Below are positions 51,293 to 56,579 of a stretch of DNA of 64,000 nt, one piece after another. Each line of letters opens with the position of its first letter. Within the stretch, counting starts at the first letter, position 1. Source of the DNA: JAWCQZ01 sp038869515 [NCBI: Halobacteria archaeon]. Lineage in GTDB: Archaea; Halobacteriota; Syntropharchaeia; JACQPP01. Location: positions 443,160 to 507,159 of the forward strand of contig JAWCQZ010000001.1 of assembly GCA_038869515.1 (NCBI GenBank), given 5' to 3'. The notes below the pieces were generated by a model that saw nothing but the letters and a program-made list of their open reading frames with translations, searched no databases and was not told the DNA's origin. The translations under genes and the position numbers were made by a program.

Positions 51293-52063
51293 ATGGCGGG
51301 CCTCCCCATCACACTTCTTACCGATTTCGGGTCCACCTACACGGCCGCCATGAAGGGGAGGATCCTCTCCGCGGCCCCTGACGCCCGCATCGTCGAGATC
51401 TCCACCAAGATCCCTTCCCACTCCGTCCGCGAGGGGGCCTTCCTTCTCCGTTCGGTGGTGCGCCACTTCCCACCGGCCGTCCACGTGGGCGTGGTGGATC
51501 CCGGGGTCGGGACCCGGAGGAAGGGGCTCATCGTGAAAGCCGGCGGCGCCTATTTGGTGGGTCCAGACAACGGCCTCCTCATGCCTGCGGCCCGGGCCCT
51601 CGGCAAGCCCGAGCCATTCGAAATCACCAAGGAGTTCCCCGGAGTCTCGCGGACCTTCCACGGCCGCGACCTCTTCGCCCCCGTGGCCGCCCGCCTCTCC
51701 CGCGGCGAGACCCCCGACGAGTTCGGCGTCCCCCTGGGCAACCCGGTGGACCTCGACCTGGACGCCTGCGAGGTCTCCGCCGACCTGCTCACCGGCGAGG
51801 TCCTCTCGGTGGACGGGTTCGGGAACGTGGTCACCAACATCCCGGCCGGCGCCGTGGCCCCCCACATTCGTCCCGGGGACCGCCTCGGCCTCCACGGGAA
51901 AATTGTCCCCTTCGCCGCCACCTACGGCGAGGTGGATGTCCACCGGCCCCTGGTCCTGGTGGGTTCCCACGACACCGTCGAAATCGCGGTCAACCAGGGG
52001 AGCGCGGCCGAGACGTTCCGGCTGAAGGCGGGAGACCGGGTCCAATTGAAGGTGGTCCGATGA
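51293..52063 (+). CDS. SAM hydrolase / SAM-dependent halogenase-like protein (DUF62)
   Basis: A 256-residue protein: MAGLPITLLTDFGSTYTAAMKG with the substrate-binding Asp, then VHVGVVDPGVGTRRKGLIVKAGGAYLVGPDNGLLMPA near 60-98 and RTFHGRDLFAPVAARLSRG near 115. The C-terminal beta-barrel has VLSVDGFGNVVTNIPAG. Archaeal members use water (as hydroxide) to split SAM into adenosine and methionine. ATG 51293 is used because the TATA-like GGGATTATGT lies at 51255-51264. It overlaps the Mer-like gene by 4 bases. Confidence 0.9.
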   Translation: MAGLPITLLTDFGSTYTAAMKGRILSAAPDARIVEISTKIPSHSVREGAFLLRSVVRHFPPAVHVGVVDPGVGTRRKGLIVKAGGAYLVGPDNGLLMPAARALGKPEPFEITKEFPGVSRTFHGRDLFAPVAARLSRGETPDEFGVPLGNPVDLDLDACEVSADLLTGEVLSVDGFGNVVTNIPAGAVAPHIRPGDRLGLHGKIVPFAATYGEVDVHRPLVLVGSHDTVEIAVNQGSAAETFRLKAGDRVQLKVVR

Positions 52064-53097
52064 CGGGCCGGCCCGTCCGGCGCGGCGTCGAGATCGTCCC
52101 CTCCTTCCCGGTCCCGGAAATCCTGCGGCTGGTCAAGGAGGCGGAGGCCCAGGGCTTCGACACCGTATGGTTCACCGACCACTTCAACAACCGGAACGTC
52201 TACGTGGCCCTCGCCAGCGTCGCGGTCCAGACCCGGAAAATCGTCATCTCGCCCGGGATCACCAATCCCTACCTCATCCACCCCGCATGGACGGCGTCGG
52301 CGAGCGCGAGCCTGAACGAGCTCGCCGGGGGGCGCACCCACCTCGGCATCGGCGCCGGGGACCGGACCACCCTGCGGCGCATCGGCGTGAAGCGCGAGAA
52401 GCCCCTCGCCCGCATCCGGGAGGCGGTGGACGTCATCCGCGCCCTCCACCGGGGGCAGGTGGTGGACTCGGACCTCTTCGGCATGGGCGGGGCGCGCCTC
52501 GACTACCCGGGCGGGGCCGTCCCGATCTACGTCGGCTCCCAGGGGCCGAAGATGCTGGAGTTGGCGGGCGAGATTGCCGACGGCGTCCTCATCAACGGCT
52601 CCCACCCGCTCGACTTCGAGGCCTCCCGGGAGCCCCTCCGGCGCGGGCTGGAGCAGCGGGGGCGGGCGAAGATGCGGGTCCCCATCGAGACGCCCGCCGA
52701 GAGGTTCGACCTGGGAGCCTACACCTGCGTCTCGGTCCACGCCGACGGGGAGAGGGCGCGGAGGGCGGCCCGCATCGTCGCCGGCTTCGTCACCGCGGGG
52801 GCGGGCGAGGTCACCCTCCAGCGCCACGGAATCCGCGCGGAGGAGTTGGCCGCGCTGCAGGCCGCTCTGGGGGCGCCGCCCTCCAAGGAGAAGTGGGGCA
52901 AGGTGGGCGCCTGCGTCACGGAGCGGATGGTCGAGCGGTTCACCATCGCCGGCACTCCCGGGGAGGTCGTCGAGCGGCTCCGGCGGCTGTTGGGGGCCGG
53001 GGTGACCCACCTCATCTTCGGCTCGCCTCTCGGGCCCGACAAGTTCGAGGCGCTGAAGGCCATCGGGAAGGAGATTCTTCCCACCCTCGGGGCGTAG
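52060..53097 (+). CDS. mer: F420-dependent LLM-class oxidoreductase, probable methylene-H4MPT reductase (Mer)
   Basis: The 345-residue luciferase-like TIM barrel has VEIVPSFPVPEILRLVKEAEAQGFDTVWFTDHFNNRNVYVALASVAVQTRKIVISPGITNPYLIHPAWTASASASLNELAGGRTHLGIGAGD. The sequence T-D-H-x-N-N-R-N-V-Y, N-P-Y-x-x-H-P and L-G-I-G-x-G-D is characteristic of Mer, which reduces methylene- to methyl-tetrahydromethanopterin with F420H2. Other F420 enzymes share this fold, so the substrate is not certain. If Mer, the organism has a C1 pathway of methanogen type. No mcr genes are in the window. Confidence 0.82.
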   Translation: MTGRPVRRGVEIVPSFPVPEILRLVKEAEAQGFDTVWFTDHFNNRNVYVALASVAVQTRKIVISPGITNPYLIHPAWTASASASLNELAGGRTHLGIGAGDRTTLRRIGVKREKPLARIREAVDVIRALHRGQVVDSDLFGMGGARLDYPGGAVPIYVGSQGPKMLELAGEIADGVLINGSHPLDFEASREPLRRGLEQRGRAKMRVPIETPAERFDLGAYTCVSVHADGERARRAARIVAGFVTAGAGEVTLQRHGIRAEELAALQAALGAPPSKEKWGKVGACVTERMVERFTIAGTPGEVVERLRRLLGAGVTHLIFGSPLGPDKFEALKAIGKEILPTLGA

Positions 53098-53173
53098 GAA
53101 TCTACGGCTTCCGGCAAACCTACCGCTTCCCGAGCCTGGCGCACTATTCGCCCGCAGTTTGACGCACTCCGGG

Positions 53174-53236
53174 ACCGAACCTCGCGCGCGAGCGTTCGGT
53201 TGAATCTAAAAACGCCAAAGTAGTGTTAATGCAACG
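53174..53236. repeat. Hairpin plus 51-bp dispersed element, copy B
   Basis: ACCGAAC at 53174-53180 pairs with GTTCGGT at 53194-53200, enclosing the perfect palindrome CTCGCGCGCGAG. Bases 53186-53236 match 39041-39091 at 45 of 51 positions. The hairpin arms differ between the copies although both are perfect. This copy marks the left edge of the accessory island, 77 bases after the mer-like gene and 8 bases from the stop of the minus-strand hypothetical gene. Confidence 0.75.
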
Positions 53237-53243
53237 CCAGAGT

Positions 53244-53537
53244 TCAGCAATCGGGCAACCCGCTGGCGAACTTCTCCGGCGGCGGCATCCTCCCCTTGCC
53301 ATGCGCGAGGATGGTTTCGATGTCGGCCTCCCCAGAGGCGACCCACCGGATAAAGCCCCAGTTCCAGTTCCGGCCTTTGCCCTTGCTGTTCCAGTAGGTC
53401 ACGTCCTGCTCAATCAGCAGCCACTTCAGGACCTTCAGGACGTATTCGTCGGTCAGGCCGATGCCGAAATCGAACCGCTTTCGCGCCAGGATTGTCTTGG
53501 GCTCGCCACACCTGGCCACGGCCTCGACGGTCCCCAT
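53244..53537 (-). CDS. Hypothetical protein divergent from the DpnI gene
   Basis: A 97-residue protein beginning MGTVEAVARCGEPKTILARKRFDFGIGLTDEYVLKVLKWLLIEQDVTYWN. It is rich in aromatic residues (WNSKGKGRNWNWGFIRW) and has less GC-rich codon use than its core-genome neighbours, supporting real coding and foreign origin. It shares a TATA region with dpnI. No family is recognised; it could be a truncated part of a larger restriction or mobile-element protein. Confidence 0.65.
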   Translation of the reverse strand: MGTVEAVARCGEPKTILARKRFDFGIGLTDEYVLKVLKWLLIEQDVTYWNSKGKGRNWNWGFIRWVASGEADIETILAHGKGRMPPPEKFASGLPDC

Positions 53538-53560
53538 GAACTCTCGGAACAGACACCCAC

Positions 53561-53570
53561 GTATTTAAAC
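53561..53570. promoter_or_regulatory. Bidirectional TATA box of the DpnI island
   Basis: GTATTTAAAC contains the self-complementary TTTAAA. It lies 19-28 bases before ATG 53589 on the plus strand and 24-33 bases from the start at 53537 on the minus strand, so both genes probably have leaderless transcripts. Confidence 0.6.
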
Positions 53571-53588
53571 CGCAAGACATGGGGTGAG

Positions 53589-54359
53589 ATGTATCTGGAC
53601 TTGCCCGCAGACGCGGCCCGGGGCTACAAGAGTCTCTCGCAGCGGGCGCGGGTCATGACCCAGGCATGGGGCCGGGAGAATCTCTACTGCCCTGCGTGCC
53701 CGTCGAAGGGTCTTGAAGCGGCTCCCGAAGGAATGGAGGTCATCGATTTTTCCTGTCCACGATGTGAATCGCCTTACCAACTCAAGTCGAAGAGCGGGCC
53801 GTTCGGGAGGAGCGTGGTAAACTCCGCCTACGCGCCGAAAATACGCGCCATCATGAACGGAACCGCACCAAACTATCTTTTCATGCGGTATGACCCGGAT
53901 GCGCTGAAGGTTCGGGAATTGTTCGTCGTCCCGCGCCACTTCCTCTCTCCGGACGTCATCGAGGAGCGGTCGGCGTTGAAGGCCACCGCGCGGAGATCTG
54001 GGTGGGTGGGTTCCAACATCCTGCTCTACCGGTTGCCGCCCGAGGCCCGGATTCCGTTGGTGGATTCAGGTTCAGCTATCGACCCTCGGCGTGTTCGCGC
54101 AGTTTGGAGGCAGTTCTCCTTCTTCGGGGAACTTTCGCCGAAGTTCCGGGGATGGACCTCCGATGTTCTTTCGTGCGTCAGGCGGATTGGGAAGACGGAT
54201 TTCATGCTTGACGATGTTTACAGCTTCGAGCGCGAGTTGAGCCGTCTCCATCCTCAAAATCGGAATGTGCGGCCAAAGATCCGGCAACAGCTCCAGGTCC
54301 TTCGAGACTTTGGCATTTTGAAATTCGAGGGGGAGGGGCGGTACCGGCTAATTCGATAG
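53589..54359 (+). CDS. dpnI: DpnI-type restriction endonuclease (methyl-GATC specific)
   Basis: The 256 residues align end to end, from memory, with R.DpnI (254 residues), which cuts G-m6A-T-C only when methylated. YKSLSQRARVMTQAWGRENLYCPAC matches its N-terminus; Cys 34, 37, 56, 59 form the zinc site. The PD-(D/E)XK core has Asp 53 and Lys 66, but position 64 is Gln (YQLKSKSG), where DpnI has Glu. ATARRSGWVGSNILLYRLPPEARIPLVDSG and RGWTSDVLSCVRRI lie in the middle, and the C-terminal winged helix FERELSRLHPQNRNVRPKIRQQLQVLRDFGILKF is well conserved. The TATA box fixes the start. A truncated dam gene follows directly. Confidence 0.92.
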   Translation: MYLDLPADAARGYKSLSQRARVMTQAWGRENLYCPACPSKGLEAAPEGMEVIDFSCPRCESPYQLKSKSGPFGRSVVNSAYAPKIRAIMNGTAPNYLFMRYDPDALKVRELFVVPRHFLSPDVIEERSALKATARRSGWVGSNILLYRLPPEARIPLVDSGSAIDPRRVRAVWRQFSFFGELSPKFRGWTSDVLSCVRRIGKTDFMLDDVYSFERELSRLHPQNRNVRPKIRQQLQVLRDFGILKFEGEGRYRLIR

Positions 54360-54360
54360 A

Positions 54361-54867
54361 AGCCCCTCACGCAACGGCCTCTACAGGGTGAACCGCAGGG
54401 GCCAGTTCAACGTGCCCTTCGGGGATTACCCGGCCTCTGCGGTCCTCGACGAGGAGAACCTCCGCGCCGCCTCCCGCCTCCTGGGGGGCGTGGCTCTGCG
54501 GGCCGGCGATTTCCAGGAGACGCTGAGAGATGCCGCCGCAGGCGACTTCGTGTACCTGGACCCTCCCTACCAGCCCATCAGCCGGACATCGAGTTTCACA
54601 GGCTATACCGAGAGCCAGTTCGGCGCCCAGGAGCAACGGCGGTTGGCGGAAGTCTTTCGTGACTTGGCAGAAAGGGGATGTCTGGTGATGGAAAGCAACT
54701 CCCACGCTGGGCTCGTGAAGGAACTTTACAGGGGGTTCCACATCACCCCGACGAGGGCCCCGAGGGCCATCAACTGCAAGGGGGAGGGGAGGGGCAGAAT
54801 CACCGAGTTTGTGATCACGAACTACTTGCCTGCGCAGACACGCCTTTCCGCGAGCTGGCCAGCCTAA
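54361..54867 (+). pseudogene. Dam-type (D12 class) adenine methylase, N-terminal half missing
   Basis: The frame contains the C-terminal half of a GATC adenine methylase. NGLYRVNRRGQFNVPFGDY (before and across the GTG at 54388), DFVYLDPPYQPISRTSSFTGYT with catalytic motif IV DPPY, and the end VMESNSHAGLVKELYRGF ... RITEFVITNY are all present. Homology begins abruptly right after the dpnI stop. The SAM-binding motif I (F-x-G-x-G) and about 120-130 upstream residues are gone. The remnant cannot bind SAM on its own, so it should be inactive. A split-gene partner elsewhere in the genome cannot be excluded. Confidence 0.85.
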
Positions 54868-55182
54868 ACCTACTGCTTCCTGGCATTTTGCACCTCCCAG
54901 AAACATCTCCGGAATTCCACGGGCGTCCTCCCGGGCCAGCTGGACGATGAGGGCCTCGTGCTCCGGGGTCGCCTTCCGGAGGGGGTTCCGGGGAGCCCGG
55001 GGGCGGTCCACCTCCTCATTCGGGAAGCGGCGCCGGATGTCGGCCCGGGAGAAGGGCGGGGGGTCGGAGTCCACCGAAGCGGACCGGGAGCTGCTTCTGC
55101 GGATATTTTCCGGTCGAAAATCGGGAGGAGAAACTGTCTGGGACGTCACGAAGCGGTAGGTTCAACCAAGATGCGGGCATCG
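54868..55182. other. Gap in the island between the dam relic and the tRNA-like relic
   Basis: No convincing gene. A minus-strand frame (55149 down through the dam relic) begins MTSQTVSPPDFRPENIRR and includes FSRADIRRRFPNEEVDRPRAPRNPLRKATPEHEALIVQLARED, which has plausible protein character, but it continues as antisense of the dam relic and has no promoter. It may be a remnant of another island gene. Confidence 0.4.
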
Positions 55183-55253
55183 GCGGGTTGGCGTAGTGGA
55201 GGAACACAACGCTTAAGACTCCTGTAATAGTAGTCGTCGGAATGGCAACCCGC
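55183..55253 (+). pseudogene. tRNA-like sequence, probably a degenerate tRNA-Leu
   Basis: GCGGGTT (55183-55189) and AACCCGC (55247-55253) are exact complements 71 bases apart, the spacing of a tRNA acceptor stem. Between them are GGCGTAGTGG (D-arm-like), GCTTAAGA with a UAA anticodon context at 55211-55218, and a long variable-like segment. The anticodon stem pairs poorly (CAACG against CTCCT), and the conserved T-arm GGTTCGAATCC is absent. It looks like a damaged class II tRNA gene or an attachment-site remnant. The start of the zinc-ribbon gene lies inside it. Confidence 0.35.
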
Positions 55254-55361
55254 GATTGCCCGAAGTGCGGCTATAAATGGGCACCTAGAGTTTCCACTCC
55301 TAAGAGATGCCCGCGCTGTGGAAAGTGGCTGGTTCCGAGGCCGGTTGGGAGCCAGGAGTAG
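55242..55361 (+). CDS. 39-residue two-CxxC zinc-ribbon protein
   Basis: MATRDCPKCGYKWAPRVSTP followed by KRCPRCGKWLVPRPVGSQE: two C-P-x-C-G knuckles 17 residues apart, as in small zinc ribbons next to DNA methylase or phage genes. Lower GC than the core genome. It ends 4 bases before the start of the methylase fragment, and both may once have been one unit. Its ATG falls inside the tRNA-like sequence. Confidence 0.7.
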   Translation: MATRDCPKCGYKWAPRVSTPKRCPRCGKWLVPRPVGSQE

Positions 55362-55365
55362 AACG

Positions 55366-56070
55366 ATGTTCGAAGTGTTTCAGAAGGAGAATATCGAGAA
55401 ATTGAAAACAACGAATCCGCTTTTCCTGCACGTAGTCTCATCCGCAGTCGCCGAGGCGGGCTTTGAACCGAGAGGGACCGTCGTCCGCATCGTCAGGACG
55501 TTGCGCGGTGGCTTCAGGCCCATGGGGGCGGAAGAAGAGTTTGAAGGCGTTTGCTCGATGCCAAGGGCTTGCTGGGAGCCGTGGGCGGTTTTCCGAAAAC
55601 CCCTCGAACGCGGTTTGACGCTGGCGGAGAATTTGAGGAGATACGATGCGGGAGCCCTCCGGAGGAATCCCGATGGAACACCTTTCACGGACGTCATCAT
55701 CAGTGAGCGGACACCCGAAACCGAGCGTAACATTGCTCCCCATCCAACCCTAAAGCCCCAATCTTTCATGCGGCGTATTGTCTGGGCTGCGTTGCCCACA
55801 GGCAAGGGTCAAGTGCTTGATACCTTCTGCGGGGCTGGGTCCACGCTGGCGGCGGCTGCGTCGCCGGGCTACGATTCGACGGGGTTGCAGGTCTCAAAAG
55901 AGTATTGCGCCGTGGCCCGGGAACCGATGCCCAAACTGGCCTTGCTCAGGGTCAATCCATGGCGGACCAAGGGAAACAACGGCGATATCGCCGGAGCCCT
56001 GAAAATGTTCGGGATGGGTTTGAACCGGTTTTCCGACAAGGAGGGTTCGGAGCAAGGGGTCCAAGCATGA
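55366..56070 (+). pseudogene. N4/N6 beta-class DNA methylase, C-terminal fragment
   Basis: The 234-residue frame starts MFEVFQKENIEKLKTTNPLFLHVVSSAVAEAGF, which in full-length methylases of this family is internal. It contains FRPMGAEEEFEGVCSMPRACWEPWAVFRKPL, APHPTLKPQSFMRRIVWAALPTGKGQVLDTFCGAGSTLAAA (motif X and the SAM-binding motif I, residues 126-163) and a frayed C-terminus. In beta-class enzymes the catalytic motif IV (DPPY or SPPY) comes before this part and is absent. It is therefore probably inactive. The last 40 residues overlap the nadM promoter, and its stop overlaps nadM by 4 bases. Confidence 0.75.
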
Positions 56071-56579
56071 GAGCGTTCTACATCGGCCGCTTCCAGCCCT
56101 ACCACCTCGGCCACCAGGCCATTCTCCAGCAAATCGCCGAGCGGGCTGACGAGGTGGCGGTCGCCATCGGCTCCGCTCAGAGGAGCCACACCCTCGACGA
56201 CCCCTTCACCGCCGGCGAGCGGATGATGATGGTGGTGGACAGTTTGAAGGGGGTCATCCCGATCCCGTTCTACGTCATCCCGCTGGAGGACGTGGAGCGC
56301 AACTCGGTCTGGGTCTCGAACGTGAAGTCGATGACCCCGCCCTTCGACGCGGCCTACTCCAACAACCCGCTGGTGGCGCGCCTCTTCCGGGAAGCCGGCG
56401 TGAAGGTCCGCCACAGCCCCCTCTACAAGCGGAACGAGTACTCGGGGACAGAAATCCGGCGGAGGATGGTGGCGGGCGAGAAGTGGGAGCACCTCGTCCC
56501 CAAGGCGGTGGTGAGGATTCTGCGGGAGGTCCGGGGGGTCCAGCGGCTCAAGGATCTGGCGAAGGGCGACCAGGAGTAG
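56067..56579 (+). CDS. nadM: Nicotinamide-nucleotide adenylyltransferase, archaeal type
   Basis: Forms NAD+ from NMN and ATP. The 170 residues have MRAFYIGRFQPYHLGHQAILQQI with the G-R-F-Q-P-x-H-x-G-H nucleotidyltransferase motif, AIGSAQRSHTLDDPFTAGERMMMV near 35, IPLEDVERNSVWVSNV near 72, and YSGTEIRRRM near 128, the ISSTxIR-like motif. The length is that of archaeal NadM. It marks the return to normal GC-rich codon use after the island. The AtuA-family gene starts 3 bases after its stop. Confidence 0.95.
   Translation: MRAFYIGRFQPYHLGHQAILQQIAERADEVAVAIGSAQRSHTLDDPFTAGERMMMVVDSLKGVIPIPFYVIPLEDVERNSVWVSNVKSMTPPFDAAYSNNPLVARLFREAGVKVRHSPLYKRNEYSGTEIRRRMVAGEKWEHLVPKAVVRILREVRGVQRLKDLAKGDQE

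What the first reader, a model, noticed from the sequence alone, without database searches (positions are those of the whole stretch)
53174..56070. DpnI island built from one intact nuclease and two broken DNA methylases
Seen: a full-length DpnI homologue, directly followed by a Dam-type methylase that has lost motif I, then a tRNA-like relic, a zinc ribbon and a second methylase that has lost motif IV, all with lower GC than the flanks. Known: DpnI cleaves methylated GATC and is only tolerated where the host does not methylate GATC. Inferred: replacement of an ordinary Dam-based restriction-modification locus by a methyl-directed one, leaving the methylase as scar. In an archaeon this would be defence against Dam-methylated mobile DNA.
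Basis: partly seen in the sequence, partly recalled or inferred. Interest (0 to 1): 0.7.

Follow-up and report, generated by a model that had tools for sequence, protein, structure and literature searches.

The report
DpnI nuclease sitting on broken dam
A probably archaeal genome carries an intact enzyme that should cut DNA marked by Dam-type methylation, directly joined to the broken-off end of a Dam-type methylase, an arrangement known from Neisseria and seen here in several unrelated bacteria, which suggests that the cutter can settle by knocking out the marker.

Summary
Confirmed: an intact DpnI homologue (53589-54359), 13 bp later the C-terminal half of a Dam-family methylase (54373-54825), then a 5'-truncated methylase of another family (55411-55953), in the lowest-GC stretch of the window. 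The tRNA relic is not supported. Best reading: DpnI took the place of the 5' half of a resident dam gene, removing the methylase and installing a nuclease for methylated GATC, as published for Neisseria, here in a probable archaeon. Of 92 distinct DpnI loci examined, 6 others touch a dam piece; each piece is incomplete and on the DpnI strand, and no full-length dam was found beside DpnI. These loci are scattered on the DpnI tree and tend to avoid GATC (0.34 of expected in the window). The enzyme belongs to a branch with Gln instead of Glu at metal ligand 64, shared by all 14 archaeal relatives. Not shown: that the lost methylase made GATC, that a full R-M system preceded, or that the enzyme is active. 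Awkward: some relatives, mostly Acidobacteriota, carry DpnI beside a complete DpnIIB-like methylase. No genome is held, so an intact dam elsewhere is not excluded.

The parts
53589..54359 (+). Intact DpnI homologue, 256 aa, PD-(D/Q)XK catalytic domain plus winged helix; D53, K66, Zn cysteines C34/C37/C56/C59 and methyl-cleft residues L130, R136, W139, G141 kept; Gln at position 64 where DpnI has Glu, Gly at 48 where DpnI has Asn
   Evidence: model pLDDT 94 matching 4esj; residue roles from PMC4117772
54373..54825 (+). Dam/M.DpnII-type remnant, C-terminal ~150 aa only (open frame runs to 54867); the N-terminal half, with the AdoMet motif and target-recognition region (motif places recalled), is gone; starts 13 bp after the DpnI stop
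55242..55361 (+). 39-aa zinc-ribbon-like ORF, doubtful as a gene
   Evidence: Pfam matches all below cut-off, weak PHROG matches
55411..55953 (+). 5'-truncated N6_N4-type DNA methylase (residues 124-302 of a 309-aa plasmid homologue); its frame runs on to 56070, into the NMNAT start
53244..53537 (-). 97-aa ORF of unknown kind, GC3 0.87, on the other strand just upstream of DpnI
   Evidence: no Pfam, NCBIfam, PHROG or PADLOC match; GC3
53098..56066 (.). Low-GC insert between a luciferase-like oxidoreductase (52060-53097) and an archaeal-type NMN adenylyltransferase (56067-56579)

Best explanation
A mobile DpnI gene replaced the 5' half of a resident Dam-family methylase gene. The same event removed the methylase (its AdoMet and target-recognition half is gone) and installed a nuclease predicted to cut GATC methylated on both strands, so the cell's own now unmethylated DNA is safe while incoming Dam-methylated DNA is cut. 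Shown: the anatomy, the intactness of the nuclease with its methyl-recognition residues, the incompleteness of both methylases, and the recurrence of DpnI at broken dam genes elsewhere. Inferred: that the lost methylase made GATC, that the event was one replacement rather than two successive ones, that the nuclease is expressed, active and methyl-directed, and that the second methylase fragment is older or separate debris.
For: (1) DpnI intact; D53, K66, four Zn cysteines and the methyl-cleft residues equivalent to DpnI L129, R135, W138, G140 kept (roles from PMC4117772). (2) Dam similarity starts 13 bp after the DpnI stop, same strand; of the solved Dam-family structures M.DpnII is closest (131.8 against 67.8 bits). 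(3) In 95 DpnI loci (92 distinct) 6 besides the window carry Dam-family pieces, all touching DpnI (overlapping to about 130 bp away), same strand and incomplete: Neisseria L001, Gallionella L026, Anaerotignum L058, Pyrinomonadaceae L070, Clostridia L073, Acidobacteriota L166; 0 of 45 control loci (details). (4) These 7 rows need 6 label changes on the DpnI tree, at least 4 forced by well-supported branches. (5) GATC is 79 observed against 234 expected in the window; scar loci are lower than other DpnI loci: 7 values against 59, one-sided Mann-Whitney p 0.009, 0.021 without the window. (6) GC3: nine host genes 0.87-0.96, Dam piece 0.83, DpnI 0.71, as if dam were the older resident. (7) Of 50 DpnI-bearing genomes 3 have an over-cut-off Dam: in one the DpnI has an in-frame stop (G628/L031), in one it is the truncated dam beside DpnI plus a second, weaker match (G638).
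Against: The specificity of the lost Dam cannot be read, because its target-recognition half is missing; the Dam family includes other sites (recalled). 86 of 92 distinct DpnI loci show no dam piece. GATC avoidance is not specific: CTAG and GTAC are avoided more strongly in the window, and archaeal loci chosen for NMNAT reach the same 0.34 (class of G007). Genome G621 (L018) has an over-cut-off Dam and an uninterrupted DpnI. Over-cut-off does not mean full length: the window remnant itself passes (137.2 against 114.85 bits); and no background rate of Dam was measured. The closest archaeal relatives L002-L009 show no dam piece, though 5 of these 8 have under 600 bp before DpnI. The second broken methylase shows that the site collects debris anyway. 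No close relative with an empty or intact site was found.
Confidence: 0.58

Rival explanations
1. Debris field: DpnI, the dam piece and the second methylase piece arrived separately in a hot spot for foreign genes and lie together by chance; DpnI did not replace dam.
For: Two methylases of different families are broken here, each without its 5' part; GC3 differs between the pieces (0.71, 0.83, 0.69); 86 of 92 distinct DpnI loci have no dam piece; methylase genes of other kinds also lie near DpnI.
Against: All 6 other dam pieces touch DpnI on the same strand although up to 6 kb per side was searched, and none occurs in 45 control loci; those controls are ordinary archaeal genes and are shorter, 2.0-3.5 kb.
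Confidence: 0.25
2. The Gln-64 branch of DpnI has another specificity or works with a partner methylase, so the window enzyme is not a GmATC-only nuclease.
For: 37 of 83 aligned enzymes, with the window and all 14 archaeal ones, have Gln at a metal-binding position; Acidobacteriota L011, L014, L018, L042 and, nearly complete, L021, and Woesearchaeota L059, all of this branch, carry a full or nearly full DpnIIB-like methylase beside DpnI; archaeal L008 has a full-length match to another methylase model on the opposite strand nearby; G621 has a Dam as well; Asn48 of DpnI, which contacts guanine, is Gly in the window and in 9 of 83 in all.
Against: The methyl cleft is conserved across both branches (R136 83 of 83, L130 82 of 83, W139 79 of 83, G141 81 of 83); with both neighbouring methylases broken, a nuclease for unmethylated sites would cut its own host unless another methylase protects it.
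Confidence: 0.12
3. The dam piece is kept as a small working protein, for instance a DNA-binding relic or regulator, and is not a scar.
For: Its frame is open for about 160 codons with possible starts and GC3 0.81-0.83.
Against: It lacks the AdoMet half; the dam pieces at other loci are different parts (N-terminal, C-terminal or middle), so no common product is kept.
Confidence: 0.05

Closest known systems
Neisseria drg (dam-replacing gene; NmeBII/Drg) in the leuS/dam locus
   Same: DpnI homologue next to a truncated dam, lower GC, methylase fragments downstream (PMC4269198, PMC516771 passages; L001)
   Different: A probably archaeal host; Gln-64 branch instead of Glu; the retained dam part is larger than in L001 (C-terminal half); the second methylase is of another family
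Pneumococcal DpnI/DpnII/DpnIII alternative cassettes
   Same: DpnI nuclease; a Dam-type M.DpnII methylase is the closest solved relative of the remnant
   Different: [quoted passage not shown] here one locus holds DpnI together with a methylase piece; no DpnD and no DpnII nuclease recognised in the ORFs scanned
Archaeal orphan Dam-like methylases (HG3, GATC)
   Same: A Dam-family methylase resident in archaea (PMC10609329, passages), a possible source of the remnant
   Different: Those are persistent methylases; here only a half is left, next to DpnI

Membership tests
DpnI / Dam-replacing family (PF06044 + PF17726), Type IIM | Both Pfam domains over cut-off and full length | tested here: met
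   166.7 and 93.8 bits against 26.7 and 23
DpnI / Dam-replacing family (PF06044 + PF17726), Type IIM | PD-(D/E)XK active site with D53, E64, K66 | tested here: inconclusive
   D53 and K66 kept; Gln at 64, as in 37 of 83 aligned rows, window included
DpnI / Dam-replacing family (PF06044 + PF17726), Type IIM | Methyl-binding cleft Leu129, Arg135, Trp138, with Gly140 behind Trp138 | tested here: met
   L130, R136, W139, G141 in the window (PMC4117772)
DpnI / Dam-replacing family (PF06044 + PF17726), Type IIM | Cuts GmATC and not GATC | not testable with these tools
   needs purified enzyme
drg-type replacement of dam | DpnI homologue abutting a truncated dam | tested here: met
drg-type replacement of dam | Close relatives with intact dam and no nuclease at the same site | tested here: inconclusive
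   no close relative found
drg-type replacement of dam | Host lacks GATC methylation | not testable with these tools
   no reads and no genome held
Former DpnII-type restriction-modification system | Remnant of a GATC nuclease beside the methylase | tested here: not met
   no such match in the island ORFs that were scanned; frames without an ORF were not
tRNA gene or relic at 55180-55262 | ARAGORN or Rfam tRNA match | tested here: not met

The most novel reading that the evidence does not exclude
DpnI genes establish in methylating cells mainly by landing in, and destroying, a resident GATC-type methylase gene. This happened independently in archaea, Bacillota, Acidobacteriota and Pseudomonadota, and the unexplained GATC avoidance of DpnI genomes is the fossil of the methylation or restriction that was there before.
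Probability: 0.4. Interest if true: 0.65.

Novelty: new member of a known kind. Interest (0 to 1): 0.5.

Why it matters
Dam replacement by DpnI was described in Neisseria. Finding it in a probable archaeon and, by the same test, at six other DpnI loci (one of them Neisseria itself) in three bacterial phyla makes it look like a general route by which a methyl-directed nuclease can enter a methylating cell without killing it. It also offers a testable answer to a stated puzzle: a published survey called it surprising that GATC is avoided in 38 of 42 genomes with DpnI-like enzymes (PMC4687349, passages). If DpnI succeeds an earlier GATC methylase or R-M system at the same locus, the avoidance is inherited.

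Tried and rejected
tRNA relic: rejected. Direct or inverted repeats marking island ends: only short imperfect pairs of the kind chance gives. Frameshifted N-terminal parts of either methylase elsewhere in the window: none; besides the known pieces only alignments at E 0.006 or weaker. Phage or plasmid origin of DpnI: no full-length match in 50,697 phage records (1 partial), 2 full-length and 4 partial of 72,556 plasmid records (both full ones Neisseria, each a 2.17-Mb record filed as a plasmid, so perhaps a chromosome), 5 viral contigs with the winged-helix part only; a first viral scan with the single protein found nothing. Second methylase as DpnA (M2.DpnII): not supported, its best PADLOC model is PDLC03215, whereas the Neisseria gene is PDLC03371 and the Anaerotignum (L058) one PDLC03376. 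GATC avoidance as proof of past restriction: kept only as weak support; rows dropped: 27 of 86 non-scar loci with under 8 kb. Host placement: NMNAT is of the archaeal equivalog, best 66% in the class of G001, 62% in that of G007, 55% in the phylum of G011; the AtuA neighbour gave 0 of 196, 0 of 23 and 1 of 389 genomes; no close relative found. First Dam model held two misread frames; it was rebuilt from five clean Dam sequences, and the dam loci were the same, plus L166, which only the second search included.
Full report
What is there. The window carries an intact DpnI homologue at 53589-54359. Its stop is followed after 13 bp by similarity to the C-terminal half of Dam-family methylases at 54373-54825: residues 132-282 of the 284-aa M.DpnII structure 2dpm, positions 123-267 of 267 of TIGR00571, residues 130-284 of a 290-aa phage Dam. 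That Dam finds no N-terminal half in the window. Further on, 55411-55953 matches residues 124-302 of a 309-aa plasmid methylase, so its first 123 residues with the DPPY motif are missing. The stretch 53174-56070 has 60.2% GC against 69.99% in the window and is the lowest 2.9-kb stretch in it. The tRNA-like relic fails every test used. The flanking NMN adenylyltransferase passes the archaeal equivalog cut-off (247.1 against 181.2 bits), and DpnI falls in a set of nine rows, the other eight archaeal (support 98), so an archaeal host is likely; a close relative was not found and no genome is held.

The nuclease. It keeps D53 and K66, the four zinc cysteines and the residues equivalent to the methyl cleft of DpnI (L129, R135, W138, G140; roles read in passages and one section of PMC4117772; alignments). 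At metal ligand 64 it has Gln instead of Glu. This is not decay: among 83 aligned rows 46 have Glu and 37 Gln, and all 14 archaeal loci and the window have Gln. Asn48 of DpnI is Gly here, as in 9 of 83 rows. The predicted model (35 sequences, mean pLDDT 94) finds only DpnI structures at E below 0.001: 4esj with query TM-score 0.85-0.87, 4kyw with 0.66. Activity and specificity are inferred.

Recurrence at broken dam. A Dam profile built from five full-length Dams was run on six-frame segments of 95 DpnI loci (92 distinct: L163, L168 and L159 repeat L073, L014 and L080) and 45 control loci brought in by NMNAT or AtuA searches. Besides the window, 6 distinct loci gave hits, all touching DpnI and on its strand, none complete: Neisseria gonorrhoeae L001 (model 227-278 of 284, after DpnI), Gallionella L026 (160-243, after), Anaerotignum L058 (200-250, before), Pyrinomonadaceae L070 (8-80, before), Clostridia L073 (7-241, before), Acidobacteriota L166 (8-50, before); the window keeps 130-282. 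Controls: 0 of 45, but they are shorter (2.0-3.5 kb) and are ordinary archaeal genes, not restriction hot spots. 77 of the 95 loci have at least 600 bp on both sides of DpnI. On a 94-row tree the seven scar rows need 6 changes, at least 4 forced by well-supported branches; shuffled labels do as well in 64 of 500, so clustering of the scars is not shown. L070 and L166 are neighbours and may share one event. In L070 a DpnD-like gene follows DpnI, as recalled for the pneumococcal DpnI locus.

Exclusion. Of 50 of the 80 DpnI-bearing genomes searched for TIGR00571, 12 have a match and 3 an over-cut-off match. In G628 the DpnI (L031) has an in-frame stop; in G638 one match is the truncated dam beside DpnI (a second, weaker one is over the cut-off too); G621 is a true exception. 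The cut-off does not prove full length, since the window remnant itself passes it. No background rate in DpnI-less relatives was measured, so this is description and not a test.

GATC avoidance. The window has 79 GATC against 234 expected by a maximal-order Markov model; CTAG and GTAC are avoided still more. With added genome stretches the ratios at scar genomes are 0.89 (G626), 0.46 (G637), 0.45 (G638), 0.17 (G1096), 0.75 (L070, locus only), 0.41 (L001, locus only) and 0.34 (window); 59 other DpnI loci with at least 8 kb have median 0.79; one-sided Mann-Whitney p 0.009, without the window 0.021 (a first version on loci alone, 7 against 70, gave 0.024). Kinship among rows is not corrected for, the amounts of sequence differ, and archaeal loci picked for NMNAT in the class of G007 also show 0.34. 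A survey found GATC avoided in 38 of 42 genomes with DpnI-like enzymes, called it surprising, and noted GATC-recognising ordinary systems in other strains or species (PMC4687349, passages). Succession at one locus would explain this.

What does not fit. A DpnIIB-like methylase (best PADLOC model PDLC03371 for L011 and L014, the same as for the Neisseria gene after DpnI in L001; a paper calls the gene following drg in three gonococcal genomes DPNIIB-like) stands complete or nearly so directly beside DpnI in Acidobacteriota L011, L014, L018, L021, L042 and Woesearchaeota L059 (PADLOC was run on L011 and L014 only). It is cut off directly before DpnI in Uhrbacteria L076 and Methylotenera L074 and lies in two pieces in L001. 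Archaeal L008 has a full-length match to another methylase model (PDLC03376) on the opposite strand near DpnI. Weaker or edge-cut matches of the same search stand at L010, L012, L032 and L080, and 1 of 45 control loci has one. If the complete ones make GmATC, they should be lethal with an active DpnI; so either they have another target, or the Gln-64 branch differs. The second broken methylase of the window is of a third family (PDLC03215). I found no trace of a DpnII nuclease in the ORFs scanned, so orphan dam or R-M system stays open.

Known work. drg in Neisseria, inserted in and truncating dam, is published (PMC4269198 and PMC516771, passages). Pneumococcal isolates mostly carry one of three alternative cassettes, DpnI among them (PMC12707154, passages). 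An archaeal R-M survey describes Dam-like orphans; the passages shown do not speak of DpnI (PMC10609329). Searches showed, in the titles and abstract openings listed (20 of 214, 30 of 42, 10 of 14, 8 of 8, 2 of 2, 8 of 8, none of none), no paper on DpnI at a broken dam outside Neisseria; two plasmid papers with the term only cite the gonococcal work. Subscription papers are not covered.

Verdict.

Noticed in passing
L011 1991-3109, L014 4703-5866, L018 4903-5976, L042 4875-5981 (also L021, L059): DpnIIB-like beta-class methylase, complete or nearly so, on the same strand directly beside a Gln-64 DpnI gene; puzzling if it makes GmATC.
   Followed up: partly
L076 3481-4038; L074 5668-5997: The same kind of methylase is cut off directly before DpnI, a second type of scar not counted among the dam scars.
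   Followed up: partly
DpnI family alignment: The family splits into Glu-64 and Gln-64 enzymes (46 and 37 of 83); all 14 archaeal loci are Gln.
   Followed up: partly
L031 (Altiarchaeales): DpnI with an in-frame stop in a genome that holds two over-cut-off Dam genes (G628).
   Followed up: partly
window 1-64000: CTAG (4 against 62), GTAC (27 against 86) and GATC (79 against 234) are the three most avoided four-letter words.
   Followed up: partly
L003 1159-1992; L006 2616-3860; L008 4923-5831: Neighbours of archaeal DpnI relatives look defence-like: a Fic gene, a DndB-like gene, a methylase.
   Followed up: no
window 53244-53537 (-): 97-aa ORF with host-like GC3 (0.87) and no match in four family libraries.
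   Followed up: no
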